Assembly: GCA_019638595.1 (NCBI GenBank)
Contig: JAHBTJ010000017.1
Coordinates: 109,353 to 173,352 of the forward strand
From: Chitinophagaceae bacterium
Lineage (GTDB): Bacteria; Bacteroidota; Bacteroidia; Chitinophagales; Chitinophagaceae
Direction: 5' to 3'
Length of the DNA: 64,000 bases
Below the pieces are notes generated by a model that was given only the letters and a program-made list of their open reading frames with translations, made no database searches and was not told where the DNA came from. Position 1 is the stretch's first letter. Each line of letters starts with the position of its first letter. This document shows, in pieces, positions 41,775-59,377 of the stretch. Position numbers and translations under genes: made by a program.

Positions 41775-42782
41775 TTATTCATTAAGCGTTTCTTCTATCG
41801 CTGCCCGTAGTTCCTCTTTATTGGGCAGGTACAGTTGATATTTACTCACAAATAATTGCGAAGAAACATTGTGCATAGCATATTGTATCAGCAGGTCATC
41901 TTTTTCTCTTGCCAGCACAATACCAATAGGCGGGTTATCTCCTTCCGTTTTTTCTTCGTTCTCAAAATACCCCAGATACATATTCATTTGTCCCACATCT
42001 TCGTATCCGGCTTCACTTTTCTTGAGGTCTATTAAAATAAAACACTTGAGGATCCTGTGGTAAAAAACCAGATCAACATAATGATGTTTGTTGCCCAGCG
42101 TAACCCGGTATTGCCTGCCAATAAAAGCAAAGCCCTTGCCCAGCTCAAGCAAAAAATGCTGAAGATGCTCAATGATCCGGCCTTCCAGCTCGGTTTCGCT
42201 ATAATGGTACAGCTCCGGTATTTTCAGGAAATCCAGTATATAAGGGTCGCGGATAACATCTTCGGGCCTGGAAACAAACTGCCCCTGCTTTGCCAGGTGT
42301 AAAATGCCCTCTTTGTCTTTAGAAGCAGCCAGGCGCAGGAATAAGGCTGCTTTTTTCTGCCGTTTTAGCTCTGTTGTGCTCCAGTTTTCTATAACAGCCT
42401 GTTTCGCATAAAAAGAGCGTTCTAAAGAGTCGTCTATTTTAACCAGTTCGCATAAATGTGTCCAGCTCAATTTGTGAGGAACCTCCTCACAAATTGGATA
42501 ATATCTGTATACCAGCCTCATATAGTTGAGGTTAGACCTGCTAAAGCCCTTTCCATGCATCATTGACAAATCTGCCGCAAGCTGCTCTAATAACGCTTTT
42601 CCATATGCTGCTCTGCCTTCTCCTTTTTGTTCAAATTCAACAATATAGCGGCCTATTTCCCAGTAAGTAGTTACTAACTGTATGTTTACGGTCTGAACGG
42701 CTTGTTGCCTTCCCTGGTTGTAAGTGGCAGAGATCTGGCTGACAAGCTCGTTATAATCCTTTTGATTGGTCAGGTTGTTCAT
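41775..42782 (-). CDS. DUF1016/YhcG-family PD-(D/E)XK nuclease
   Basis: 335 residues from ATG 42782. N-terminal helical domain (about 20-140; TTYWEIGRYIVEFEQKGEGR, LSMMHGKGFSRSNLNYMRL) and C-terminal nuclease-like domain with LGNKHHYVDLVFYHRILKCF and VLIDLKK-type D-x-K motif (IDLKKSEAGYEDVGQMNMYL). YhcG proteins occur in defence islands and near type I restriction genes. Divergent from the small genes to its right. Confidence 0.83.
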   Translation of the reverse strand: MNNLTNQKDYNELVSQISATYNQGRQQAVQTVNIQLVTTYWEIGRYIVEFEQKGEGRAAYGKALLEQLAADLSMMHGKGFSRSNLNYMRLVYRYYPICEEVPHKLSWTHLCELVKIDDSLERSFYAKQAVIENWSTTELKRQKKAALFLRLAASKDKEGILHLAKQGQFVSRPEDVIRDPYILDFLKIPELYHYSETELEGRIIEHLQHFLLELGKGFAFIGRQYRVTLGNKHHYVDLVFYHRILKCFILIDLKKSEAGYEDVGQMNMYLGYFENEEKTEGDNPPIGIVLAREKDDLLIQYAMHNVSSQLFVSKYQLYLPNKEELRAAIEETLNE

Positions 42783-42999
42783 AAGTAGCAAAATTTTTTA
42801 TAAGCGAAATATTGATCAAACGTACATGAAATTTTTCATTCATAAAACCTGCCCGTTCCGGCAGGCGGGCGCACAAAGGATGAATGAATCCCGAATGATT
42901 TCGGGATATGGGAGTTCCTCTTTTTTCTACTGGTATGTGTATTCATATACCAGCATAAAAGAGTGAGTATTTCGGCATGTGAAGACATATACCGATGGG
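42783..42999. other. Gap with hairpins
   Basis: ATCCCGAA-TGA-TTTCGGGAT hairpin near 42890-42908 and a CCTGCCCG...CGGCAGGCGGGC palindromic stretch. No gene. Confidence 0.45.
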
Positions 43000-45146: not shown

Positions 45147-45749
45147 TTAAGTAGCTGATACTGACCTGCCATTCTTTACACATTCACCCACATGCGTTAC
45201 CTCCCTTACATCAACCAGGTGCGCGGCTTCTACCAGCTTTATTAAATGGGTGCATACTGTCAGCGGGGCGGTTATAGCCGTAGTATCACTGTTCAGGGCA
45301 TTCTCCACTACCTGCTCCCAGCACTGCAGCCAGTTGTTGAGCGACCGGTAGCTGAAAAACTGCTGAAATGCCCGGTAGGGATCACTGTATTCTTTTTCAG
45401 ACAGGCAGCGCGGAAACTCCTTCCACGCATCAGCGCTAACATAATGGCTGCAATAGTATTTTTTATTAAAGAGCTCTTCTTTTTTAATATTAACCGCGCT
45501 GTGCTTTGTATGCCTCAAAGCATGAGCGGCTTTTATAAGCGAGCGGATGAGCCTGCTATATAACAATATATCGCCGGGCGGATATCCTTTGCCCCGCCTG
45601 GCATGGCACACCAGCTTTTTGATGAGCCTGCGAAAATGGTGCACATGCGCTTCGGCAAAGAAGTGGGCAATTACCTGGTAAGGATCGGTAATGCACTCGC
45701 AGAGCCAGCATTGGGTAGTAAACGGGTCTTTGTGGTGTTTGGTTTTCAT
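45147..45749 (-). CDS. Unknown protein, 200 residues, with internal DPY..FF repeat
   Basis: I do not recognise this family. Two internal segments look alike: ITDPYQVIAHFFAEAHVHHF (about 21-40) and YSDPYRAFQQFFSYRSLNNW (about 122-141), each followed by a hydrophobic helix. Cys cluster CWLCEC at about 14-19. Basic overall, no signal peptide or membrane helix. ATG 45749. A fragment of its 3' end is duplicated at 44188. Follows the 45800-46294 gene on the same strand. Confidence 0.55.
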   Translation of the reverse strand: MKTKHHKDPFTTQCWLCECITDPYQVIAHFFAEAHVHHFRRLIKKLVCHARRGKGYPPGDILLYSRLIRSLIKAAHALRHTKHSAVNIKKEELFNKKYYCSHYVSADAWKEFPRCLSEKEYSDPYRAFQQFFSYRSLNNWLQCWEQVVENALNSDTTAITAPLTVCTHLIKLVEAAHLVDVREVTHVGECVKNGRSVSAT

Positions 45750-45777
45750 CTTTTTATTTTTAGGTGAGGCTTAGACA

Positions 45778-45808
45778 GCCCTATAAGGTTTTTAAAACCT
45801 TATAGGGC
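45778..45808. terminator. 31-nt perfect palindrome over a stop codon
   Basis: GCCCTATAAGGTTTT and its exact inverse around one central T. The minus-strand gene upstream ends inside it (stop at 45800). It resembles a Bacteroidota repeat hairpin and may serve as a terminator. Confidence 0.6.
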
Positions 45809-46294
45809 TTGTTGCGGCGGTATTACGCCGGGTAAGGCGGTGATGATCTCTCCGCCGGTGCTGGTAATGACCGTAATGGTGGTTACGGTATTGCCGGAAG
45901 TATCGTGCCCGAGCGGCGTGCCAGTATCCAGTACCCGCTGCAGGTGAGGACTGCCCGGCATAGGCTGGGGCGGTTGCTGGCAGGCATCTCTTATGCAGGC
46001 TACAATTTGCGGTATGGGTATGGTAAACTTGCCGGTAAGCGGAGCCTGTCCGCCTGCCGGCGGATGGCGCGGCACTTTGTAGTAATGGCGCTCCGGTATA
46101 TGCGCCAGGGCTTTGCTGCTTAGGTACGAGCCTTTACGCAGCAGCTTTTTGCGGTGCTTTACGGGCAGTTGCCAGGTAAGCCCTTCCTGCAATTGCTGCA
46201 GCCAGCTTTGGGTATCTGCCAGCAGGAACAGCCATTGGGTTTCGTTAAAATGGATGTTGGTGCTTTGTGCAGGTGTGACAACGGCGTTGTTCAT
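45800..46294 (-). CDS. Unknown protein, 164 residues
   Basis: No family recognised. N-terminal helical part with IHFNETQWLFLLADTQSWLQ, then basic LPVKHRKKLLRKGSYLSSKA, then ERHYYKVPRHPPAGG, LTGKFTIPIPQIVACIRD, and a Thr/Val-rich tail (GNTVTTITVITST). No signal peptide. ATG 46294. Paired with the 200-residue gene downstream and preceded by a long hairpin element. Confidence 0.5.
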   Translation of the reverse strand: MNNAVVTPAQSTNIHFNETQWLFLLADTQSWLQQLQEGLTWQLPVKHRKKLLRKGSYLSSKALAHIPERHYYKVPRHPPAGGQAPLTGKFTIPIPQIVACIRDACQQPPQPMPGSPHLQRVLDTGTPLGHDTSGNTVTTITVITSTGGEIITALPGVIPPQQAL

Positions 46295-46348
46295 AACAAA
46301 AAGTTTTAGGCTGGCACCCGCACAAAAAAGGCGTGGCGCTCAACTTAC

Positions 46349-46461
46349 CGCTTTTGAGGCCCTGAGAAGCCCAGCACACGGATAAGAGAGCTCACGCCTA
46401 GGTCGTGAGCTATTCTGCTTATCACCCCGCATGCTTAGAAATTTCTCAGGTTTCAAAAGCG
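46349..46461. ncRNA. 113-nt nested hairpin, candidate structured RNA or leader
   Basis: Stems: CGCTTTTGA (46349-46357) with TCAAAAGCG (46453-46461); CCTGAGAA (46361-46368) with TTCTCAGG (46443-46450); GATAAG (46381-46386) with CTTATC (46418-46423); AGCTCACG (46389-46396) with CGTGAGCT (46404-46411), loop CCTAGGT. It ends 55 bp before the minus-strand pair of unknown genes, so it could be their leader RNA. A palindromic transposon relic is the alternative. Confidence 0.45.
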
Positions 46462-46542
46462 AGATTCAAAGCGAATGCTTCAAATGATTTTATGAAGTAG
46501 TCGCGAAAATAATTTCTTTGTAAATATAAAGGGAAAATATTG

Positions 46543-47049: not shown

Positions 47050-48270
47050 TTAAATTATATGTTTGATGTCAGTTCTTGTTTTTAATTTATTGAAAATATA
47101 GTCCATTGACTTTACGTCGTCCTCAATATATGCGTAAATATTTTTTGGAAGTTTTTTCCCTGTCCGCTGGCAACGTAAATACTGAAATGCAACATATAAG
47201 CCGTTAAGATGGTCATGTTTAAATTTGTATCCAAAATATCTTCCAACTGGTTTAAGTCCGTAAGCCCCTATTGGTAAAATGTAATTTTGTCGAATGAGAG
47301 TACAAAGGTCGAAGTGATTGCAGCTTAAAAAATATTCAAAATCTAAATCATGTCGCTTTAGCGCCGCGCTGAGAATTTTTGTATCAAATCCTACTCCAGA
47401 ATAGCTAAATAAATGAGGACTGTTTACCCTTTTAATATAAGCCAAAAAGTCTTTTAAAATTTTCTTCTCTTGCTTCCACGTTTCTGCATAAAAGTGCTTG
47501 ATTTTTTTGTTATGATAAATAGCAATGCTCCATATCTTTTTGTCGGCAAATGAAGAAGATAGATCTGTTTCAATATCAAAGTGCATTATTTCTCCTTCTG
47601 GAAATTCAATGGGAGTTAATCGATAAATTTTATTTTCAATTTGAGAAAGTGCGGAAAGTTTTAGTCTATTAATTCTTTCTTGTGTTATCCCAACCCCTGA
47701 CATTTTTTTTGAAGTATCAAAGGCTATCAAGTCGTCAAAATTCTCAATTCCTATTTGCCTTAGAATTTGAATTTTACCCCAACTAATGCCATGAAGTGAA
47801 GCAAGATCAAATTTTTTATAACTCTTCGTTGCCTTGCTTACATACTTACTGATATTTTTTGCGCCATTTACTTTATATTGCCCTGAGATGGTGTCATCGT
47901 CTGTTTTGTAATAAAGAGTCTGTCCTATCCCAATTTTTCTTAGCGATCTTTCAACCCTATAAACATCATCAACATCTAACCAATTATACGTATATACGCA
48001 AATAACTTTCTCATCAGCAGACGGAGCATTGGGACTCGGCTTCGAAGTAGCTGCTTTTGCGCTAACGCCTAAAATCCCATCTTGTGTTGCTCGTTTAATT
48101 TTTTGCCAAATGTTGTCATGATCACTAACATTCGAAAAGACAAGCCACTTACCCGACTTAGTATGTTTATATTTTTGTGGGTGTCGTTTAACCTTAATTA
48201 CAGAAGCATAAACCCAATAGTCATCCATTAGCTCTGTCGGAAAATCGCTGTCTAAATTTTGTGTTGCCAT
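47050..48270 (-). CDS. DUF1917-like + HhH + DnaQ/RNase H-like nuclease fusion
   Basis: 406 residues. About 15-145 look like the DUF1917/Bles03 (putative phosphothreonine lyase-like) domain: DYWVYASVIKV, KSGKWLVFSNV, VICVYTYNWLDVDDVYRV. About 160-215 are a helix-hairpin-helix region (FDLASLHGISWGKIQILRQIG, SGVGITQERI). About 225-400 are a DEDD exonuclease-like domain: MHFDIETD, SYSGVGFDTKIL, HFDLCTLI, IEDDVKSMDYIF. Acidic residues at the expected places suggest an active nuclease. AT-rich relative to the core genome, consistent with transfer. Confidence 0.68.
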   Translation of the reverse strand: MATQNLDSDFPTELMDDYWVYASVIKVKRHPQKYKHTKSGKWLVFSNVSDHDNIWQKIKRATQDGILGVSAKAATSKPSPNAPSADEKVICVYTYNWLDVDDVYRVERSLRKIGIGQTLYYKTDDDTISGQYKVNGAKNISKYVSKATKSYKKFDLASLHGISWGKIQILRQIGIENFDDLIAFDTSKKMSGVGITQERINRLKLSALSQIENKIYRLTPIEFPEGEIMHFDIETDLSSSFADKKIWSIAIYHNKKIKHFYAETWKQEKKILKDFLAYIKRVNSPHLFSYSGVGFDTKILSAALKRHDLDFEYFLSCNHFDLCTLIRQNYILPIGAYGLKPVGRYFGYKFKHDHLNGLYVAFQYLRCQRTGKKLPKNIYAYIEDDVKSMDYIFNKLKTRTDIKHII

Positions 48271-48456
48271 AAACTATCTGATTGAACATGATGCATCTTA
48301 AGGTAACTGATAATATCAAATATTTATTGTGGTAGCCCCAATCCATTATTCTTGTTTCAATATACTGCCAATGTAAACACAATGAGCTCGCAATGAACAT
48401 AAATCAATAATCAATATCCTGTTGCTCCGTTTATATCCTGTACCTAACCCATCTTT
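48271..48456. other. Divergent promoter region
   Basis: Between the nuclease fusion and the endonuclease gene; no clear motif. Confidence 0.4.
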
Positions 48457-48960
48457 ATGAATAATGTCTTTCAACAGCAAACCACAAAAGCTAACCAGGA
48501 CTCATACGAAAAGGGCTATCTCTTTGAGAAGTTTGTTATCAGTCTTTTCAACGAAAAAAACTTCAAGGTGCAAGAATGCCGGGAGTCAAAAAGAATAGTA
48601 GAAGGAGCGACGCTGCTGGCTGATCATTATTACCCCGATATTGAACTTATTTTTCTGGGAAAAAAGAAATATTTTTTTGCGGTAGAATGCAAATGGCGTA
48701 GAAGCTTACAAAATGGCATGACCACCTGGGCTAAAGAGCACCAAATTAGAAGGTATGAGGAATTCCAGGTGCGCAAAAGGATACCAGTATTTATTGCCAT
48801 CGGTATAGGAGGCGAGCCCTATGCTCCCGAAAAATTATTTGTTACACCTTTCGAAAAGATTAAGGGATCGTCTCACGTTTTTGAATCCGACCTGATTCCA
48901 TACAAAAGAAAGCCTTCACATAAGTTCTTTTATGATACCGTTCAGCTAAAGCTATTTTAA
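48457..48960 (+). CDS. PD-(D/E)XK restriction-endonuclease-like protein
   Basis: 167 residues. ANQDSYEKGYLFEKFVISLF opens the Mrr/restriction-endonuclease fold. The catalytic triad is YPDIEL (Asp) and FFAVECKWRR (E-x-K). A stand-alone nuclease domain without a specificity region. Convergent with the three-gene operon, so cotranscription is excluded, but it may still be functionally linked. Confidence 0.75.
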   Translation: MNNVFQQQTTKANQDSYEKGYLFEKFVISLFNEKNFKVQECRESKRIVEGATLLADHYYPDIELIFLGKKKYFFAVECKWRRSLQNGMTTWAKEHQIRRYEEFQVRKRIPVFIAIGIGGEPYAPEKLFVTPFEKIKGSSHVFESDLIPYKRKPSHKFFYDTVQLKLF

Positions 48961-48997: not shown

Positions 48998-50827
48998 TTA
49001 TTTTGCAAAATCATGTGAATCAGCAATCCTGGCCAAATATTTAGCATACTTATCCAGCATGTTCTTACTAAATGGTATTCTAAGTCGTTTAATTCGCTTA
49101 ATCCCGAATTTGAAATCTTGACCATCAAAAGGAATGGAAATACCAATAGAGGTACCTAAACTGAATGGTTGATTAAGTTTCTGAGTTATTTTCTGTTTAA
49201 CTTCATCTGGGATTCCTGTGATATTTTGATAAAGCTCGCTCAATTCCTTCTTTTGAGCCTCATAATGAGCTATGAGTTTTTTCAAACGTCTTTCCCATGA
49301 ATGGCTTAGGATATTAATATCTGTTGTTGATAATCCAACAGTAGAAGCAGTTCCTTCGGTATTGAAAACAACTAAATCAAGAGCGTTTAAATCGGCCAAA
49401 ATAGGTTTCTTAAAATTAATAACGCCTACCGTATCAGCACTTTCCTTAAAATAGTCCAGTATGAATTTGTTAAAAAGATAATGATTCTGCACTCCATTCT
49501 TTTCAGCAAACTTGTGAATGTCCTGGATAACGTCGTCAATTAACTTTTCTTCAATTTTACATAAATTGCCAAACTTCGATTCTCTTGAGCCATCCTTTCT
49601 AATAACCAAATCACATTCTTGCCCTAAGAGAATGTAAGTCCCAATTCCTGAGCCTTCAAATACTTCAAAAATATCACCGTTTTCTATTGGTGAATTCAAC
49701 GGGTTTAATAAGCCAGCCTTTAAATATATTTCTGATCTTCTAATTTCATCGCTATCCTTATAAGGATATATGTCTGATGGAATTTCAAAGCGTATATCGC
49801 TTATTTTTTTTGCTTTCTTAATGCTTGGGTTTACTTCTTCTGAGTATTTTTTCTCAATCATGAGTTTTTTAATACTATCATCATGGATAATATTTGCCAC
49901 TCGTAAAAGTGTCTCCACTTCCCAAACCCCTTCCTCCACAGAAGAAATCAAAATAGATTGGTCAAAATCGTAGGTATCTATTTTATTAATTTCCTCGATC
50001 ACCTTTCCCTGCGCCTCTTTTATTAATTCAACTGATTTGATCTTGATCAATTCAAAATATCGGTCTAAAATTGCCTTTTTTATCCCATCGCATAATAATT
50101 CAGGGTTTTCATTTCGCTTTTTGGATAATGCGAAAAAATCTTTCTCTTGAAGTCCTCCTTTATTTTCAGAAGCAATAGTTTTTCTTTTCTCAAACTCTTT
50201 AGGTACAGATTCGATCACATGAGTAATTAGAGTGCAGTATGATTTATCCCAAATAGAAGACTTTTTTACTTCAACAATCAAATCATCACCTTTTACTCTG
50301 CCGCTTTTAAAATCCTCATGTGTGGCTCTTGTTAAATCCTGATCAAAAATCAAGAGCACTTTTTCATTATCTTTTAATTCAGCTTCTAATTCTTTAGATT
50401 TATCTTTCCACTCATCAGGGCTAATTAATGAAAGTGATTTGTCTGGAAAAATTGATTTTAGCTGCATTGTTCTTTCAAAATCTTCTGCACTAAAAGAACT
50501 ATCATCGAGGGCTGATATCTGTTTAAATACCTCTATTCGTTTTGTATTATCAAAGTCTTCCCATTTTGAAGAAAAATCATCTAATATTATATCTGTTTCA
50601 GGCAATTCTAAATCAATTGCTTCTCCTAGCGCTTCCTTTACTTTATTACCTTCCCCTTTATCAATTAGAGTCTTAATCATTCCCGATACCATCGGAAACT
50701 CTACCAGGCAGTTATAGTCATCAACATAAAAAGCTGACGTGATATTTAATTCCTTTAAAAGTCGGCCAAATCTCGCAATTGTTTCTGCAATTGCAGCATC
50801 ATTGCCGGGAGCAATCAGTTTGGTCAT
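48998..50827 (-). CDS. Receiver-like protein of a methyltransferase/GHKL operon
   Basis: 609 residues. Residues 30-237 look like a divergent two-component receiver with an inserted helical block: SAFYVDDYN (acidic pair D36-D37), VLLIFDQDL (candidate phosphoacceptor D162/D164), Thr in YCTLITH and Lys in FFALSKK. About 240-350 is helical, about 360-425 a beta-rich piece with NGDIFEVFEGSGIGTYILL and GQECDLVIRKDGSR, and the C-terminus is basic and helical. Third gene, 3 nt after the ATPase. AT-rich. Confidence 0.6.
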   Translation of the reverse strand: MTKLIAPGNDAAIAETIARFGRLLKELNITSAFYVDDYNCLVEFPMVSGMIKTLIDKGEGNKVKEALGEAIDLELPETDIILDDFSSKWEDFDNTKRIEVFKQISALDDSSFSAEDFERTMQLKSIFPDKSLSLISPDEWKDKSKELEAELKDNEKVLLIFDQDLTRATHEDFKSGRVKGDDLIVEVKKSSIWDKSYCTLITHVIESVPKEFEKRKTIASENKGGLQEKDFFALSKKRNENPELLCDGIKKAILDRYFELIKIKSVELIKEAQGKVIEEINKIDTYDFDQSILISSVEEGVWEVETLLRVANIIHDDSIKKLMIEKKYSEEVNPSIKKAKKISDIRFEIPSDIYPYKDSDEIRRSEIYLKAGLLNPLNSPIENGDIFEVFEGSGIGTYILLGQECDLVIRKDGSRESKFGNLCKIEEKLIDDVIQDIHKFAEKNGVQNHYLFNKFILDYFKESADTVGVINFKKPILADLNALDLVVFNTEGTASTVGLSTTDINILSHSWERRLKKLIAHYEAQKKELSELYQNITGIPDEVKQKITQKLNQPFSLGTSIGISIPFDGQDFKFGIKRIKRLRIPFSKNMLDKYAKYLARIADSHDFAK

Positions 50828-50830
50828 AAG

Positions 50831-53341
50831 CTAAAGTTCAATTATAGAAGAAAGATCAATCTGGAAGATATACCTTTTACCATATTGATTTTTTTCACTC
50901 GAAAGTATTATTTCACAATTTGTAGTTTCTATTAATTGCTGCACAATAAACAACCCTAAACCTCGTCCTATTTTTTTAGGTTTGCCAGAAACAAAAGGTT
51001 GGAAAATTCGATCTTGGATAGCAGGCTCAATACCATTTCCATTATCATATATTTTGATAAAAGGCTCTTTTGCTTCAACAGTTACGACTGGCTTAAATCT
51101 TGGATGTTGTTTTAGTTTTTCTTTTAACCAGTATTCAGAATTGATGATAATGTTATCGAAAATCTGTGTTAATTTCCCTTTGTTTATTTTTAATGTAAAG
51201 TCACTTCCTTTGATTGAAGTCACAAAACCTATTTCGCCATCAAATCTTTCTTCATAGTATTCTTTTAGCTCCGCTAAAAAGCCTTTGACTGAAATCTTCT
51301 CTTTGCTTTCCCTAACGTATTTCAACGACGGAGCTAAATGGCTTAGTTGCTTTCTGAAGGACTTTGTTGCACTTCTAATATATTCTACATATACGTTGAT
51401 CGAGGATATATCTATTGCAGTCTTTCCTCTAATCTTTTTATTAAGCCTTTCTGTCTCTTCCACTATTCTATCCACGATATTTGAAAGCTCATGTGATAAA
51501 GCCTCTGCTGTTAAGCCGAGTCCTGCAAGCTCCGCAAAGTCAGACAATTGTTCTTCTAGGCTCTCAATTTGAGGTTGCAGGTATTTTACATATTCATCTA
51601 GCTTGTTTGTTTCCGTTAAAATATCTTCCACTTGTTCAAGCAATTCTTGGGCTTCTTCCAATAGAGAAGATATTTCAGCAAAGAGTTGTCTTCTTTCTTC
51701 ATCCTCTGCTGTACCCTTACTACTTCCTTGCTTTTTAGAGGCTTCCCTAACTTTTATTGCTGCATTAGCGAGGTGATACTTTACCTCTTGTGTTTTCTTA
51801 GTAATCTTTTTTGCTTTTGATGAAGCTTTATTTAGCTTATCAAAAGAATCGGACATGCTTTTAATTCCCGCAGACTGCTGAGCTTTTTGCTTCCTATATT
51901 CATTGTAACTTCGTCTCGTTCCTTCTAAAATGTTATTAGCCTGGTCAATCACATAGTTCATGACCCTCATAAAATTTCTTGAATAAGGAGTGTCTGTAAA
52001 CCCCTCTCTATCTGTTTTTTCTTTTAAGTTCCTGTTTTCCTTCGCTGTAATAGAAACAAAACCGACCACATTGCCCGGTCTTAATCCATAAAAAGACCCA
52101 CCGGAAGTTTGTCCTCCAGATAGATTAAGCCAATCTTGCCCATCAATACCATAAGGTTTAATACCAAAGCCATCCCGAAATATTCGCACCCCAACCTGGT
52201 TTTGAACTATTCTTTTAAATTCAGCAATTGAACTGAATGCTTGAGTAATCGAATCAGTATCTTTAAAGAAGAAGTCATCAATTTCTCCTTTAAAATTTCC
52301 AGGATGAGCAATTTCAGCTACGGAATTTGTATCGTCAATATTAAGAGAAAGGCGATCCAAAGTATTAAATTCAATTTCTCTTTTAAATGTATAGAATACT
52401 CCCTTTTTCCCTGAATACTTTAAATCATCTACATGATTTTGTTTATTATCAACCGGATCAGTCAGAAATGTAAAAAAGTCCTCTCCGAAATCAGGTAATA
52501 TTTTTGTTTCGTAAAACTCAGTAGCATCGGCACTATTAGAACCGTTAAGCTTCTGAAATTTGACAGTGCCGTTAATTATTACATTATTGTCAGTTAACTC
52601 AAATTTTAGTGTTGTAACTGAATTTTTCCGAACTTTTTCACTCAATTCATCAAGATCAATGTTTTCTCCATTGATTTTAAGATAAACGTTGAAAATCCGA
52701 TCTTCCTTGAAAGGGAAAATCATCTGAGAAATTTGGCCCCTAAATTTGTCCCAGGATACCCCTTCCCATTTTTGTGCCTCCTTTAAATTGGTAACAACTA
52801 ATGTTGTACCTTTTTCAGATGGGTCTTTCTTGAGCTGGTCTATATGAACAGGGACAGAAGTTAAAGACGTATCATCATCAAAGGTTTCCCAATCAAACGC
52901 GACATGATTTTTTTTATCGCTCTTAGCTTTTCCTGTAAAAAGTTCGAGACGACTACCAAGCTTATTTGTACTTAGTCTACCAACTCCCTTTTCTCCTAAT
53001 GGCGTTCTCCCTTTTGGAGTAACCAGTCCATCAGCTTTAAATTTCTTTTTTGAAGATAATGAAATCTTCATCCAGCTATTCCATATATCATCATCTGACA
53101 TTCCAAAGCCGTTGTCAGTTATTGATATAAACCCAGGTGGTGAATCTTTGTAGAAAATGTTTGGATTACTGTAATCGTCCTTTGTGTTTATTTCAACCCT
53201 TGCCCAATCAGCATCTGCATCATAAGAGTTTTTTATCAACTCCATCATAGCAGTTACTTCATCAGAAACAAGTTCTTCCCCTAATTGACGGATAAGAGCT
53301 GCGCTGACATCAAAATGAGGTTTTCGTGTTTCTTTAGCCAA
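50831..53341 (-). CDS. Protein with two GHKL ATPase modules (MORC/Hsp90-like and histidine-kinase-like)
   Basis: 836 residues from a TTG start (53341); the next Met is at residue 32, inside the ATPase. Module 1: MELIKNSYDADA (N-box), ITDNGFGM (G1, D76), LGEKGVGRLS (G2), GTTLVVTNL, a MutL/MORC/Hsp90-type site. About 470-600 is coiled coil. Module 2: H617 in EALSHELSNIVDRI, IFDNIIINSEYW, IYDNGNGIEP and GRGLGLFIV, a histidine kinase core. Overlaps the methyltransferase gene by 8 bp. It could sense and then phosphorylate the receiver-like protein. Confidence 0.8.
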   Translation of the reverse strand: MAKETRKPHFDVSAALIRQLGEELVSDEVTAMMELIKNSYDADADWARVEINTKDDYSNPNIFYKDSPPGFISITDNGFGMSDDDIWNSWMKISLSSKKKFKADGLVTPKGRTPLGEKGVGRLSTNKLGSRLELFTGKAKSDKKNHVAFDWETFDDDTSLTSVPVHIDQLKKDPSEKGTTLVVTNLKEAQKWEGVSWDKFRGQISQMIFPFKEDRIFNVYLKINGENIDLDELSEKVRKNSVTTLKFELTDNNVIINGTVKFQKLNGSNSADATEFYETKILPDFGEDFFTFLTDPVDNKQNHVDDLKYSGKKGVFYTFKREIEFNTLDRLSLNIDDTNSVAEIAHPGNFKGEIDDFFFKDTDSITQAFSSIAEFKRIVQNQVGVRIFRDGFGIKPYGIDGQDWLNLSGGQTSGGSFYGLRPGNVVGFVSITAKENRNLKEKTDREGFTDTPYSRNFMRVMNYVIDQANNILEGTRRSYNEYRKQKAQQSAGIKSMSDSFDKLNKASSKAKKITKKTQEVKYHLANAAIKVREASKKQGSSKGTAEDEERRQLFAEISSLLEEAQELLEQVEDILTETNKLDEYVKYLQPQIESLEEQLSDFAELAGLGLTAEALSHELSNIVDRIVEETERLNKKIRGKTAIDISSINVYVEYIRSATKSFRKQLSHLAPSLKYVRESKEKISVKGFLAELKEYYEERFDGEIGFVTSIKGSDFTLKINKGKLTQIFDNIIINSEYWLKEKLKQHPRFKPVVTVEAKEPFIKIYDNGNGIEPAIQDRIFQPFVSGKPKKIGRGLGLFIVQQLIETTNCEIILSSEKNQYGKRYIFQIDLSSIIEL

Positions 53342-54746
53342 CTTTTCTAAAAATTAAGATATCTTCAAATGACATCAGTTCTGAATCTTTGTTTCGTTTT
53401 GCCATTCGTTTATTGAGAATTTCTCTTGAAATCTTCTTAATTAGAATGGCTCCTTGATTTTCAACAAGCTCTTTGATTATTTTATCATTGGGAATTTCGA
53501 TGCCGCCAACATTTCTATTGCCGACAGTCCAGATTTGATATGAATTGACTTTTAGGGAAGAATGAATATTTATTATGGAGATATATAAATCATTTATGAA
53601 TGATACAACCTTTTTCAGTTTATCTGGAGATTTAATTTGAAGTGTCTTATAAGTGTTTTCAAACGAAGGTGAGTTTCGGAATAAAATAGCTAACTGGCTT
53701 GCTTCAATCTGTTTCAGCCTTCCTCCTAATCCCCGTGAATCAATTTCAGAAGTTGTTTTTAAAAAATCGGCTGTTGCGAGTTCATGTATATCACCTAAGT
53801 CAATCCATTGTAAAGGAAGGTATGAATGTTGGCCATAGGTTACGGTAGTCTTATTATCCCCGTAAGGTGGCGAAGTCACCAGCAGGTCAAAAAAATTATC
53901 CTGGCCATTAGGTGTAAAAATTGATTCTTTACTGTCTAATAATTTAAGGCTTACTTGACCGATATAAGCCCCTTTTGAAAGTTTATCAGCATTAGTTAAT
54001 AAATCGGAATACCAATTCAAATCTTCAATACAACTTTCAAAATGTTCCTTGAATGATTGAATTGGCGAGAGATCGCGGCTATTAATATCCTCAGCTTTTC
54101 GAATATGCAATTTGAAAGTAGATGTTCTATCGTTGGAAGTCAATCTTACAACTTCTGCTAAAACTACCCAATAAAATCTCCTGATGGCAGGTCTTTTTTC
54201 TTCCCGTACTGCTCTTACAATTCTTGATAGTTCAATCGCAACAGAGTCTTTAAACCATTTTTTTAAGCCTTTAAAATTAGCCTCAATTTTGTTAGAGCTA
54301 TCTTTTTCGAATTGTTGGAAAAAAAATGGTTTTCTTTCTTTTATAGCCTTGATATAATATGGGCCTGTTCTGGTTTTTGACACTAATATCGCAAGAGGAT
54401 TGATGTCTTGACCATAACAGTCTAGCCCATTTTCCATACATGCTACTAACGATGTTCCCGAACCCATATAAGGATCCAGTACACTTGAGATTGTGGGCTT
54501 ATTTCGAACTATTATTTCAATGAGTTTCCGTTGAACGACAGGAACCATCATTGCAGGATACTGAAAGAAACTATGCAAATATTCACTTCTATCGTGATCT
54601 GGTGATGACCAAAAAGTGTTATTTTCTTCTGTTAATGCATCAATTTCATTACAGACTTGTTCATCAACATCTTTTGGTGTCAAAGCAAGCGAACAGTCTG
54701 TTATAATTACTCGTTTTATTAGTGGAACTTTTTCAATTACTTCCAT
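53334..54746 (-). CDS. DNA methyltransferase (SPPY type)
   Basis: 470 residues from ATG 54746. SAM site LDPYMGSGTSLV (91-100), amine-binding LLVTSPPYGDN (SPPY 292-295), separated by about 200 residues of insert containing helical and target-recognition-like sequence. SPPY points to N4-cytosine or N6-adenine methylation of the beta-like group. First gene of the operon. No restriction enzyme is in the operon. Confidence 0.82.
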   Translation of the reverse strand: MEVIEKVPLIKRVIITDCSLALTPKDVDEQVCNEIDALTEENNTFWSSPDHDRSEYLHSFFQYPAMMVPVVQRKLIEIIVRNKPTISSVLDPYMGSGTSLVACMENGLDCYGQDINPLAILVSKTRTGPYYIKAIKERKPFFFQQFEKDSSNKIEANFKGLKKWFKDSVAIELSRIVRAVREEKRPAIRRFYWVVLAEVVRLTSNDRTSTFKLHIRKAEDINSRDLSPIQSFKEHFESCIEDLNWYSDLLTNADKLSKGAYIGQVSLKLLDSKESIFTPNGQDNFFDLLVTSPPYGDNKTTVTYGQHSYLPLQWIDLGDIHELATADFLKTTSEIDSRGLGGRLKQIEASQLAILFRNSPSFENTYKTLQIKSPDKLKKVVSFINDLYISIINIHSSLKVNSYQIWTVGNRNVGGIEIPNDKIIKELVENQGAILIKKISREILNKRMAKRNKDSELMSFEDILIFRKVG

Positions 54747-54767
54747 ATAATGAGTTAATAAATGAAA

Positions 54768-54775
54768 CAAATATA
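54768..54775 (-). promoter_or_regulatory. -7 element of the three-gene operon
   Basis: TATATTTG on the minus strand, 22 bp before the methyltransferase ATG, implying a short 5' UTR. No -33 TTG stands out. Confidence 0.45.
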
Positions 54776-55961
54776 TTTATTTTTTGCCTATTTTTATAAT
54801 ATGCTGTAATTCATATAATTACATAAAAAATGTACATGGTTTTTGTTGGTTAACAAAACCAAATAAACAACAATTTTAATGTTGTGCATATAACCGGAGT
54901 ATGCATAGGGATTACAACCCATTATTAACTATTTCACACTTCTTATTGATTTGTGTCCTCTAAAAACAGCACTTGATCTTTAATCCGCATGTGTAAACAC
55001 ACCGATTAAAAAATATAACTTAACTCTCTTTTTCGTTCCACATTTTTTGCATTTTCTGCAAAATGGATATATACAAAGACAACTGTCCTCCTGTTATATT
55101 GGAGTATATTTATAAAGCCACTAAAAATTTTTGAAATGCAGGTTCGGGTAGTGGCAGGCAGTCAAAAGATTGAAGGATTAAAAGTGTATTTCAAGGTAAG
55201 ATGTTTTTTGGTAATATCAAATATTTTATTGGTGAGGGTTAGCAATTACTATATAGCAAATTAGATAAGGAATTGTTTGATGAATTTTATAACGATCGCC
55301 AACGGCTCAGGCAAATTGCTCACCAAATAAGGCAGGGAATTACCAGTGAATCGTTATGATGACCGGTGTATCAGGTTGAAAAATTTAAAATTTTGTGTGA
55401 GTCATTGTTTTTTTGATCCGCATAGGTTTGTAGATTTCCATAAAGAGTTAGCATGCTTTTTTACATTTATCTATTTGCAAAAAGATTTTTTGCTTTATAC
55501 TTCGTACATGCTTCATATTGAACGGAACTACCGCCGATATTCAGCGGGATGCTTCATGAGCAGTTGAATAGAATTGTTGACGTACAAGAGTGCGATCCCG
55601 CCCCCGGCGGGACAGGCTGCACAAAAGCCCAATAGAAATCCAACTGCCGGCTACCCAAAAATAATAATACACTACTCATTCAGCCTGGTGATTGTGTACG
55701 GCAGCAGCTATAACAATTTCCTTTGCTACCAGGGCAGGTAGAATACTCCGCAACAACAAAAAGCCGCACCCCAATTCAAATGTTAAACCAGCGATTATGC
55801 CCGCCATACAACCTACTGGTTTATCCTTCCCCACCAGTTCCTGGTGCTGTGCCGGCAGATGGGTACGCCTCCCCGTAGCGTGCTCCCCGATTATTTTATT
55901 GGTATGTGTGTAGCATTAGCAGAGGATTTTGTTGGTGAGTAAGACACCTAAATAAGAAAAA
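54776..55961. other. Gene-poor AT-rich gap with gene debris
   Basis: Nearly 1.2 kb with no intact gene. About 55200-55356 contains a broken frame (KYFIGEG, stop, LYSKLDKELFDEFYNDRQRL) that looks like the end of a lost gene. A 73-codon frame at 55692-55913 has no recognisable family. The rest is featureless. Confidence 0.4.
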
Positions 55962-57838: not shown

Positions 57839-57925
57839 TGCCAAATCTTACCTTTTTGATATACTTTTGGCAGATAATAATTTTTATTAGTTGCCAAATC
57901 TATGTTTTTTTTGCTACTTTTGGCA
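57839..57925 (+). promoter_or_regulatory. Duplicated promoter/operator before the DUF234 ATPase
   Basis: Two tandem units. Each starts TGCCAAA (57839-57845; 57892-57898) and ends TTTGGCA (57866-57872; 57919-57925), an inverted pair, with -7 element TACTTTTG (57862-57869; 57915-57922) overlapping the right arm. The second lies 16 bp before the start codon. Confidence 0.6.
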
Positions 57926-57940
57926 GGTAATAGAAAAGAG

Positions 57941-59377
57941 ATGAAGCATACGATCATAGGCCGGACAGCAGAAATAAAAATACTGGAGCAGTTGCTGAGA
58001 AGCGATCAGCCCGGGCTGCTGGCCATCTATGGAAGAAGACGGGTAGGCAAGACTTACCTGGTAAAAAATTATTATGCAGATCACCTGAAGTTCGTTTGCA
58101 GCGGGGAATCCGGTGGCAGCCTGCGCACGCAGCTTGCCAATTTTCAGCAGCAATTGAATACCTGGTTCCCCGCCAACCGGCAGCTTCAGCCGCCCGCCAA
58201 CTGGCAGCAGGCTTTTATTATGCTTCGAGAATGCCTTGAAACGGTTAAAACGAAAGGTAAAAAAGTTATTTTTTTTGACGAGCTGCCCTGGCTGGACACC
58301 CATAAATCGGGGTTTGTTTCTGCCTTCGGGTATTTCTGGAATATATACCTTTCTGACAGGCCGGACATACTCGCGGTAATATGTGGTTCCGCAGCCTCCT
58401 GGATGATCAAAAAGATAGTCAACAATAAAGGAGGGTTGCATAACAGGATCACGCAACGGGTGAGGTTGATGCCTTTTACCTTAAAAGAAACAAAAGATTA
58501 CCTGCAATACAGGAATATCCGTTTCAGCGATTACCAGGTACTGCAACTGTATATGATAACCGGGGGCATACCACATTACCTGAATGCCGTTAAACGGGGA
58601 GAAAGCCTGCACCAGGCGATTGATCATACCTGCTTTGTGCCTAACGGCCTGCTGGCAGATGAATTCCAGAACCTGTATCCAGCACTGTTCAATAATTATG
58701 AAAAGCATGTGCATGTAATACAAGCCCTGGCTAAAAAGAATAAGGGGTTGACCAGGAATGAGCTGCTGGCCAGCGGGGATTTAGTGACAGGAGGCGGCCT
58801 TACCGCTGTGCTTGAAGAACTGACAGAGAGCGGCTTTGTAGAAAAGACGGAGCCTTTTAATAAAAAAAAGAAGGAAAGCCTTTATCGGCTGGTGGATGAG
58901 TTTTCCCTGTTTTATTTAAGGTTCATGAGGGGTAACAGCAGTAAGAATGACTGGCTGACGATCAGTAAAACAGGAAAATACCTGTCATGGTGCGGATATG
59001 CTTTTGAAAATGTGTGTATGAAGCATATTCCACAGATCAAAAAAGCGCTGGGCATATCGGGCATCAGCGTATCTTACTGTTCCTGGTATCGTGCAGGCAG
59101 TAAACAGGCAGCCGGTGCACAGATAGACCTTTTACTGGACCGGAGCGATAATACCATTCATATTTGCGAGATAAAATTCAGTATAAAGCAGTTTGTTATT
59201 GACAAGCGGTATAGCCAGCTATTACAGCAAAAAATAGCCGCTTTTCGTGAAAGCATTCCGCCCGGAAAAGGATTGCTTTTGGCGTTTATAACCACTTACG
59301 GTGTGGCTGATAATGAATATAAGCTACAACTTGTGGATAACGAGATCAGGATGGAATCGTTGTTTGACCAGGTGTGA
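57941..59377 (+). CDS. DUF234-type AAA ATPase with C-terminal nuclease-like domain
   Basis: 478 residues from ATG 57941; the longer frame starts in the promoter. Walker A IYGRRRVGKTYLV (about 27-39), Walker B KKVIFFDELPW, then ITQRVRLMPFTLKE. Winged-helix region about 250-330 (KNKGLTRNELLASG). C-terminus has GAQIDLLLDRSDNTIHICEIKFS, a D...E-x-K triad of the restriction-endonuclease fold. Common in Bacteroidota and archaea in many copies; role unknown, perhaps conflict-related. Confidence 0.85.
   Translation: MKHTIIGRTAEIKILEQLLRSDQPGLLAIYGRRRVGKTYLVKNYYADHLKFVCSGESGGSLRTQLANFQQQLNTWFPANRQLQPPANWQQAFIMLRECLETVKTKGKKVIFFDELPWLDTHKSGFVSAFGYFWNIYLSDRPDILAVICGSAASWMIKKIVNNKGGLHNRITQRVRLMPFTLKETKDYLQYRNIRFSDYQVLQLYMITGGIPHYLNAVKRGESLHQAIDHTCFVPNGLLADEFQNLYPALFNNYEKHVHVIQALAKKNKGLTRNELLASGDLVTGGGLTAVLEELTESGFVEKTEPFNKKKKESLYRLVDEFSLFYLRFMRGNSSKNDWLTISKTGKYLSWCGYAFENVCMKHIPQIKKALGISGISVSYCSWYRAGSKQAAGAQIDLLLDRSDNTIHICEIKFSIKQFVIDKRYSQLLQQKIAAFRESIPPGKGLLLAFITTYGVADNEYKLQLVDNEIRMESLFDQV

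What the first reader, a model, noticed from the sequence alone, without database searches (positions are those of the whole stretch)
48998..54775. Three-gene methyltransferase / double-GHKL ATPase / receiver-like operon: likely undescribed conflict system
Seen: SPPY DNA methyltransferase, an 836-residue protein combining a MORC/Hsp90-like ATPase and a histidine-kinase-like ATPase (H617) separated by a coiled coil, and a 609-residue protein with receiver-like D36-D37, D162/D164, Thr and Lys. The genes overlap by 8 bp and are spaced 3 bp, share one promoter, are AT-rich and lie in an island of nucleases. Known: MutL/MORC-type GHKL ATPases occur in restriction-modification neighbourhoods. Inference: self-marking methylation plus an ATPase/phosphorelay that senses foreign or unmodified DNA. 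I do not recognise the trio as an established named system.
Basis: partly seen in the sequence, partly recalled or inferred. Interest (0 to 1): 0.88.

Follow-up and report, generated by a model that had tools for sequence, protein, structure and literature searches.

The report
DNA-marking immune system with phosphorelay switch
Three neighbouring genes, kept together across many bacterial phyla, appear to mark the cell's own DNA and pass an alarm through a kinase relay to a response protein; related relay pairs sit beside two other kinds of DNA-marking genes, which hints at a general self/non-self alarm, but none of it has been tested in a cell.

Summary
In detail: an amino-DNA-methyltransferase (SPPY), an 836-aa fusion of a MORC/MutL/Hsp90-like ATPase with a histidine-kinase core (H617), and a 609-aa receiver protein form one AT-rich operon. 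Of 44 loci from over ten phyla, 32 keep the order MTase-ATPase/kinase-receiver and 4 carry the MTase convergently; no fourth gene recurs as a partner. H617, receiver D162/K236 and both ATP sites are nearly invariant.

The kind is not unrecognised: a 2021 in-silico paper (PMC8011034) described a sister system (HEF_HK + Response_reg_2, mostly beside C5 methylases). The window family matches neither Pfam model but has the same layout. New here: (1) related kinases sit beside three kinds of mark writer, amino-MTase, C5-MTase and phosphorothioation (Ssp) genes: 32 of 39 other kinase places in a Bacteroidota sample; (2) the receiver protein ends in a predicted MazF-like barrel with a conserved GDIF...QPCDLxxR signature, a candidate effector. 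In a congener the same flank carries Thoeris-type genes.

Best reading: self-marking plus a mark-sensing kinase that phosphorylates a receiver-gated effector. Layout is secure; phosphotransfer and defence likely; effector chemistry unproven, and distant kinases often lack a recognisable receiver partner. New variant of a known, untested kind.

The parts
53334..54770 (-). amino-DNA-methyltransferase (SPPY; N4-cytosine more likely than N6-adenine, recalled rule); likely start ATG 54746 (470 aa)
   Evidence: Pfam N6_N4_Mtase 2.8e-9; PADLOC MTase_II PDLC03360 2e-99, residues 34-476; SPPY 35 of 35
50831..53341 (-). double GHKL ATPase / histidine kinase fusion, 836 aa
   Evidence: HATPase_c_3 and HATPase_c; 35 of 35 aligned homologues have both
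51914..53326 (-). residues 6-476: MORC/MutL/Hsp90-type GHKL + S5 ATPase half
50834..51517 (-). residues 609-836: DHp (H617) and kinase catalytic domain
48998..50827 (-). receiver (REC) protein with C-terminal barrel, 609 aa; no Pfam family over its cut-off, no NCBIfam or PADLOC match
   Evidence: D162 and K236 39 of 39, D36 and D37 37 of 39 each
50054..50755 (-). residues 25-258: receiver domain with long insertions
49022..49693 (-). residues 379-602: predicted MazF/PemK-like barrel with GDIF...QPCDLxxR signature; candidate effector
48457..48960 (+). 167-aa gene with a weak PD-(D/E)XK match, convergent with the operon; probably co-cargo
   Evidence: PDDEXK_11 E 0.085, below cut-off; PADLOC Csx1 9.4e-5; no relative among genes near the other trio loci
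47050..48270 (-). Bles03 + RNase_H_2 gene, AT-rich, probably co-cargo
   Evidence: Pfam 3.4e-20 and 1.8e-17; GC 0.341
55212..55226 (.). 15-bp TAATATCAAATATTT, repeated at 48311-48325; exact single copy at the matching flank of L079 and L081, not shown to be the insertion junction
   Evidence: 6 of 300 shuffled flank pairs share some 15-mer

Best explanation
A mobile, mark-gated immune system. (1) The MTase marks a short motif in host DNA. (2) The MORC/MutL-like ATPase half of the second protein acts as a DNA clamp that probes mark status. (3) On foreign, unmarked DNA the clamp drives its C-terminal kinase to autophosphorylate H617. (4) The phosphate passes to D162 of the receiver protein. (5) This releases the C-terminal MazF-like barrel, the effector, which stops the infection (RNA cleavage or another poison-type activity) in place of a restriction nuclease. 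Shown by sequence and structure prediction: the gene unit, conserved residues, domain folds (barrel weakly), correlated divergence, no recurring fourth gene, exchange of mark writers among related kinases. Inferred: sensing of mark status, direction of the relay, defence, effector chemistry.
For: Unit: of 44 loci 32 have the three genes on one strand in this order, 4 have the MTase convergent just downstream, 5 are cut by contig ends, 3 are exceptions. L046 fuses kinase and receiver in one 1266-aa ORF. Distances correlate (receiver-kinase r 0.95, receiver-MTase 0.84, kinase-MTase 0.83; 0 of 2000 permutations as high, n=34). H617 37/37; D162, K236 39/39. No non-core cluster is shared by more than 5 of the 44 loci. 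Writers: amino-MTase (window family), C5 (L060, directly upstream; L062-L068 7 of 7), phosphorothioation genes (L083, L086, L089, L091, L092). In the Bacteroidota sample 32 of 39 other kinase places have a writer in the fetched stretch: 4 amino-MTase, 23 C5, 5 PT. Mobility and setting: 0 of 11 other congeners has it; the same flank carries SIR2-STALD and ThsB-TIR genes in L079 and an AAA_21-DUF4435 gene in L081.
Against: No functional data. MazF match: Z in the range where chance arrangements occur (tool note); Foldseek gave no hit at E<=0.001; profile comparison with 14 PemK sequences failed (probability 0.6%); MazF's Arg before the second strand is not kept (role recalled). Of the 39 sampled kinase places 7 show no writer (L175, L176, L179, L183, L187, L190, L192; L175 is a 5.7-kb contig, the L183 kinase runs into a contig end, L190 is a 217-aa ORF), and a receiver-like gene follows the kinase in 17 of the first 20 but, by profile or motif, in only about 5 of the weaker 19. 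Crude control: 135 kb not chosen for the kinase (window minus operon, L078-L081) holds one C5 gene, so a chance neighbour is possible. The MTase's wider family occurs without the kinase: L130-L134, 5 of 5, have none within about 1.3-1.5 kb.
Confidence: 0.45

Rival explanations
1. Epigenetically tuned two-component regulator: mark status is sensed and the phosphorylated receiver protein controls gene expression or element transfer, not immunity.
For: Kinase and receiver with canonical residues; the barrel could bind nucleic acid; 61 of 115 plasmid records with kinase hits are typed conjugative, though 43 of the 115 are Campylobacter and the weakest hits are annotated as ordinary sensor kinases.
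Against: No DNA-binding domain recognised; writers of three kinds beside related kinases; variable site shared with Thoeris-type genes.
Confidence: 0.2
2. Restriction-modification in which kinase and receiver regulate a DNA nuclease supplied in trans (the 167-aa gene, HNH genes or host nucleases).
For: Weak PD-(D/E)XK match in the window cargo; HNH_2 genes beside L005/L033; PMC8011034 names HNH_2 as the best-represented endonuclease domain near the sister system; N-terminus resembles BbrUII/HgiDII restriction enzymes (NCBIfam 6.8e-18, below the curated cut-off).
Against: No gene family recurs widely beside the trio. The neighbours of the 44 loci were clustered, not annotated one by one, so unrelated nucleases could have been missed.
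Confidence: 0.2
3. The receiver-barrel is itself a DNA nuclease with a new active site (QxCD...R) that cuts unmarked DNA after phosphorylation.
For: 13 of the 16 columns that are 39/39 lie at or after N375; no recurring separate nuclease.
Against: No restriction-type nuclease among the 50 structure rows listed; such absence is weak evidence.
Confidence: 0.1

Closest known systems
HEF_HK (PF19191) / Response_reg_2 (PF19192) two-component-like elements (PMC8011034; parts 1-4 of 7 read)
   Same: HATPase_c_3 + DHp + HATPase_c protein next to a receiver-like protein and a DNA methylase. The 7 PF19192 loci over the cut-off all read C5 MTase-kinase-receiver (C5 by its N-terminal motif by eye, by PADLOC for L062); kinase homologous at 3.5e-60 or better; a G[DT][IV]...CD signature in the receiver protein
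   Different: Window family matches neither Pfam model (0 of 36, 0 of 35); amino-MTase; kinase 836 aa against 966-1001; receiver similarity is three colinear weak matches, best 32 columns (hhalign probability 25%, E 7.6e-4)
paraMORC ATPases in restriction-modification operons (PMC2292703; abstract and section 5 seen)
   Same: GHKL + S5 ATPase beside DNA methylases
   Different: Several of those families end in nuclease, TIR or unknown domains; here the C-terminus is a histidine kinase
Ssp phosphorothioation loci, e.g. A. baumannii L092 (PMC12421847, passages seen)
   Same: A related kinase and receiver protein lie beside SspB-C-D-like genes; [quoted passage not shown]
   Different: Mark is phosphorothioate. 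Whether the paper means this pair is not clear: L092 also holds an ordinary OmpR-like regulator gene
Detocs defensive two-component system (recalled, not tested)
   Same: Kinase-to-receiver immune signalling
   Different: As recalled, no DNA-mark writer and other effectors

Membership tests
HEF_HK / Response_reg_2 system | receiver protein matches Pfam Response_reg_2 (PF19192) | tested here: not met
   0 of 36 members at E<=0.1; no match in the own genome
HEF_HK / Response_reg_2 system | kinase matches Pfam HEF_HK (PF19191) | tested here: not met
   0 of 35 at E<=0.001; window protein 11.8 bits, E 0.36, cut-off 24.1
HEF_HK / Response_reg_2 system | HATPase_c_3 + His-Glu/Asp DHp + HATPase_c next to a receiver gene | tested here: met
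   35 of 35 have both ATPase domains; H617 37/37, E618 34/37; adjacency
HEF_HK / Response_reg_2 system | C5 cytosine methylase neighbour | tested here: not met
   window MTase is N6_N4_Mtase, no C5 hit in the window; C5 present in the distant member L060
paraMORC ATPase | N-terminal GHKL plus S5 domain beside a DNA methylase | tested here: met
   Morc3, MutL and Hsp90 matches over residues 1-480; MTase adjacent. Assignment to one of paraMORC1-5 not tested
Type II restriction-modification | DNA methyltransferase | tested here: met
   activity not tested
Type II restriction-modification | cognate restriction endonuclease encoded with it | tested here: not met
   no gene family recurs as partner across the loci; unrelated nucleases not excluded
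Two-component system | phospho-acceptor His and Asp with DD, T/S, K | tested here: met
   H617 37/37, D162 39/39, K236 39/39, D36 and D37 37/39 each; T202 is T or S in 20 of 20 rows printed of 39
Two-component system | phosphotransfer | not testable with these tools
   needs biochemistry
MazF/PemK toxin | fold | tested here: inconclusive
MazF/PemK toxin | sequence profile and the Arg before the second strand | tested here: not met
   hhalign probability 0.6%; no conserved Arg in that column; role recalled
Phosphorothioation-based (Ssp) defence | PAPS-reductase-like, DUF4007 and SspC-like genes nearby | tested here: not met
   no hit in the 64-kb window with profiles built here; met at other kinase loci
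Detocs | DtcA/B/C components | not tested
   recalled only

The most novel reading that the evidence does not exclude
A mark-agnostic immune relay: a paraMORC-kinase/receiver pair works as a general read-out of DNA self-marking and is plugged into different writers (N4/N6-methyl, 5-methylcytosine, phosphorothioate); instead of cutting DNA it phosphorylates a receiver-gated MazF-fold effector, so epigenetic self/non-self discrimination becomes a classical His-Asp phosphorelay.
Probability: 0.36. Interest if true: 0.9.

Novelty: new variant of a known kind. Interest (0 to 1): 0.68.

Why it matters
In classical restriction the enzyme that cuts also reads the mark. Here reading and response seem split by a His-Asp phosphorelay, and related relays sit beside three chemically different marks. 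If true, it could explain modification loci that lack a nuclease, and it would give MORC-like clamps, known from eukaryotic chromatin silencing, a testable bacterial role as sensors of DNA status that signal through a kinase.

Tried and rejected
Rejected or failed: a conserved fourth gene (the widest cluster is in 5 independent loci and not adjacent; a recombinase-looking cluster, identity not tested, is in 4). Membership in PF19191/PF19192. Phage carriage: no phage record; single-protein viral scan nothing; profile scan one IMG/VR contig, L061. PDB by sequence for the receiver protein: none at E<=1. Foldseek PDB and viral: none at E<=0.001. MazF by sequence. The 15-bp repeat as element end: homology with congeners runs past it to 55026-55110. 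Promoter scan not above shuffles. A first sample of 20 kinase loci gave 20 of 20 with a writer, but three (L155-L157) were picked because one search had shown an MTase there and most of the rest were the best-scoring; I then fetched the remaining 19 listed places, 12 of which have a writer. The odds of the novel case were lowered from 0.40 to 0.36 for this.

Literature: 8 searches showed no experimental paper on this trio; only listings and the passages cited were seen, one search listed 15 of 151, and subscription papers and preprints are not held. PMC10853773: six terms (GHKL, receiver, histidine kinase, MORC, MazF, two-component) absent from the main text. DefensePredictor (PMC13092281; passages and section 8) names HATPase and REC in the legend of predicted systems; I could not tell whether one is related. 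PMC12839542, PMC12137116, PMC8713573: passages only.

Rows dropped: L005 (same locus as L033) before counts; L046 (fused) from kinase and receiver alignments; L059 from the MTase alignment; sequences under 550/760/400 aa. Eight PF19192 hits below cut-off (L013-L020) were not read. In one search two genome loci (L057, L059) and six plasmid loci were labelled 'na'; PT rows needed 4 label changes, so they do not form one clade. Counts are lower bounds, since only 2-4 candidates per genome were scored.

Full report
OBSERVATION. Pfam finds N6_N4_Mtase in the first and HATPase_c_3 plus HATPase_c in the second; the third has no family over its cut-off. H617, D36-D37, D162, T202 and K236 are there. 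GC is 0.344 against 0.436.

CO-OCCURRENCE. Plasmid tblastn found the receiver protein in two records, Hymenobacter and Rhizobium, both with the whole trio. A profile scan of the species collection gave 66 pattern matches, 40 of them relatives; one of viral contigs gave 1. With window, L003, L004 and L005 that is 45; L005 duplicates L033, leaving 44. Of these 32 have MTase-kinase-receiver on one strand (in L023 two genes are split, in L046 two are fused), 4 have the MTase convergent just downstream (L050, L052, L054, L055), 5 are cut by contig ends (L039, L041, L056, L057, L061), and 3 are exceptions: L053 has only a receiver fragment, L059 a weak MTase 3.3 kb upstream, L060 a C5 methylase whose gene overlaps the kinase gene by 8 bp. 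By record title or the 44 include Bacteroidota, Balneolota, Pseudomonadota, Myxococcota, Gemmatimonadota, Planctomycetota, Lentisphaerota, Armatimonadetes, Acidobacteriota, Actinomycetota, a nanoarchaeal and a clostridial genome bin; many are metagenome bins, where a contig can be misassigned. Distances of the three proteins correlate (n=34). Clustering of neighbours shows no shared fourth gene.

RARITY AND MOBILITY. The receiver query hits 2 of 395 phylum genomes (this single-sequence search missed G167, found later) and 1 of 12 genomes of the genus, the own one. In 395 genomes the MTase profile at E<=1e-20 is in 23; the three over 300 bits (G000, G364, G167) have the kinase adjacent, and five of the next seven, held as L130-L134, have none within about 1.3-1.5 kb. 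The kinase profile at E<=1e-30 is in 36 of 395. In congeners the right flank (to window 55026-55110) is kept in L078, L079 and L081 and the left (45163-46518) in L081, but the cargo differs: SIR2-STALD and ThsB-TIR genes in L079, AAA_21-DUF4435 and TPR genes in L081.

RELATION TO KNOWN. PMC8011034 described HEF_HK/Response_reg_2 pairs with a conspicuous presence of C5 methylases; N6/N4 methylases appear in its network legend. 0 of 36 receiver and 0 of 35 kinase members match those models. The 7 PF19192 loci over cut-off are all C5 MTase-kinase-receiver; their kinases are clear homologues, their receivers show three colinear weak matches. So the window trio is a sister branch with another MTase.

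WRITER EXCHANGE. The window kinase hits 115 plasmid records. I read 17 neighbourhoods (L004 and L092 by ORFs): phosphorothioation genes near L083, L086, L089, L091, L092; C5 MTase near L084, L087, L090, L096 (in L096 about 3.5 kb from the kinase); amino-MTase L003, L004; none next to the pair in L082 (a class I methyltransferase gene lies 5.7 kb on), L085, L088, L093, L094, L095. FtsK/SpoIIIE genes occur in L085, L091, L093, L094, L095. Partner proteins carry receiver motifs; two short ones score as Response_reg below cut-off (2.4e-5, 2.6e-6). In the Bacteroidota list there are 47 rows, six being second pieces of one gene, so 41 places, 39 without G000 and G364. I fetched all 39, in two lots. 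First lot: 20 of 20 with a writer (3 amino-MTase L155-L157, chosen with knowledge; 13 C5; 4 PT L164, L165, L172, L173) and 17 with a receiver-like gene downstream (not L165, L167, L174). Second, weaker lot: 12 of 19 with a writer (L191 amino-MTase fragment; L177, L180-L182, L184-L186, L188, L189, L193 C5; L178 PT); a receiver-like partner is clear in L184-L186 and L191 and likely in L176, while many have a 220-310-aa downstream gene without the motifs. Together 32 of 39: 4 amino, 23 C5, 5 PT. A crude control of 135 kb not chosen for the kinase has one C5 gene. In the kinase tree amino-MTase rows group (98, with two unlabelled rows), PT rows fall in one 100 clade with five unlabelled rows, C5 rows in several.

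MECHANISM. Most likely: mark, sense with a MORC-like clamp, signal by His-Asp phosphotransfer, respond through the receiver's own barrel. My probabilities: one functional unit 0.95; phosphotransfer H617 to D162 0.75; immunity 0.75; mark-gated sensing 0.6; barrel as toxin-type effector 0.35; the statement as a whole 0.45, taken loosely on step 5.

VERDICT. Confirmed observation; interpretation right in outline, but the kind was already predicted in silico. New are the separate family, its spread without a recurring nuclease, the link of related kinases to three mark writers including phosphorothioation, and the candidate effector domain.

Noticed in passing
L079:7087-9050 (G399 contig C40): SIR2-STALD and ThsB-TIR genes (Thoeris-type) at the flank that in the window borders the trio: a variable defence site in this genus.
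   Followed up: partly
L092:7989-17330 (A. baumannii record NZ_CP077849): SspB-C-D-like genes beside a paraMORC-kinase and a receiver protein with ITQPCDL; no nuclease recognised by eye among the eight ORFs of 200 aa or more listed. The record is labelled a plasmid but is 3.66 Mb long.
   Followed up: partly
L041:3257-7475 and L051:12743-16835: A second recurring three-gene set beside the trio: AAA/SMC-like ATPase, GHKL protein, canonical-looking receiver protein.
   Followed up: no
L046:6787-10587: Natural fusion of kinase and receiver protein in one 1266-aa ORF (Armatimonadetes bin).
   Followed up: partly
window 41775-42791: YhcG/DUF1016 PD-(D/E)XK nuclease (PADLOC PDC-S02, 3e-134), about 6 kb from the operon.
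   Followed up: no
window 57902-59377: ATPase_2 protein matching PADLOC candidate PDC-S27 (3.6e-194).
   Followed up: no
L167:10339-11253, L174:10480-11196, L181:5362-6267, L182:5679-6608: Genes of 238-309 aa after C5-linked kinases without receiver motifs; possible alternative response proteins.
   Followed up: no
L061 (IMG/VR contig): Kinase and receiver genes on a 10-kb contig classed as viral.
   Followed up: no
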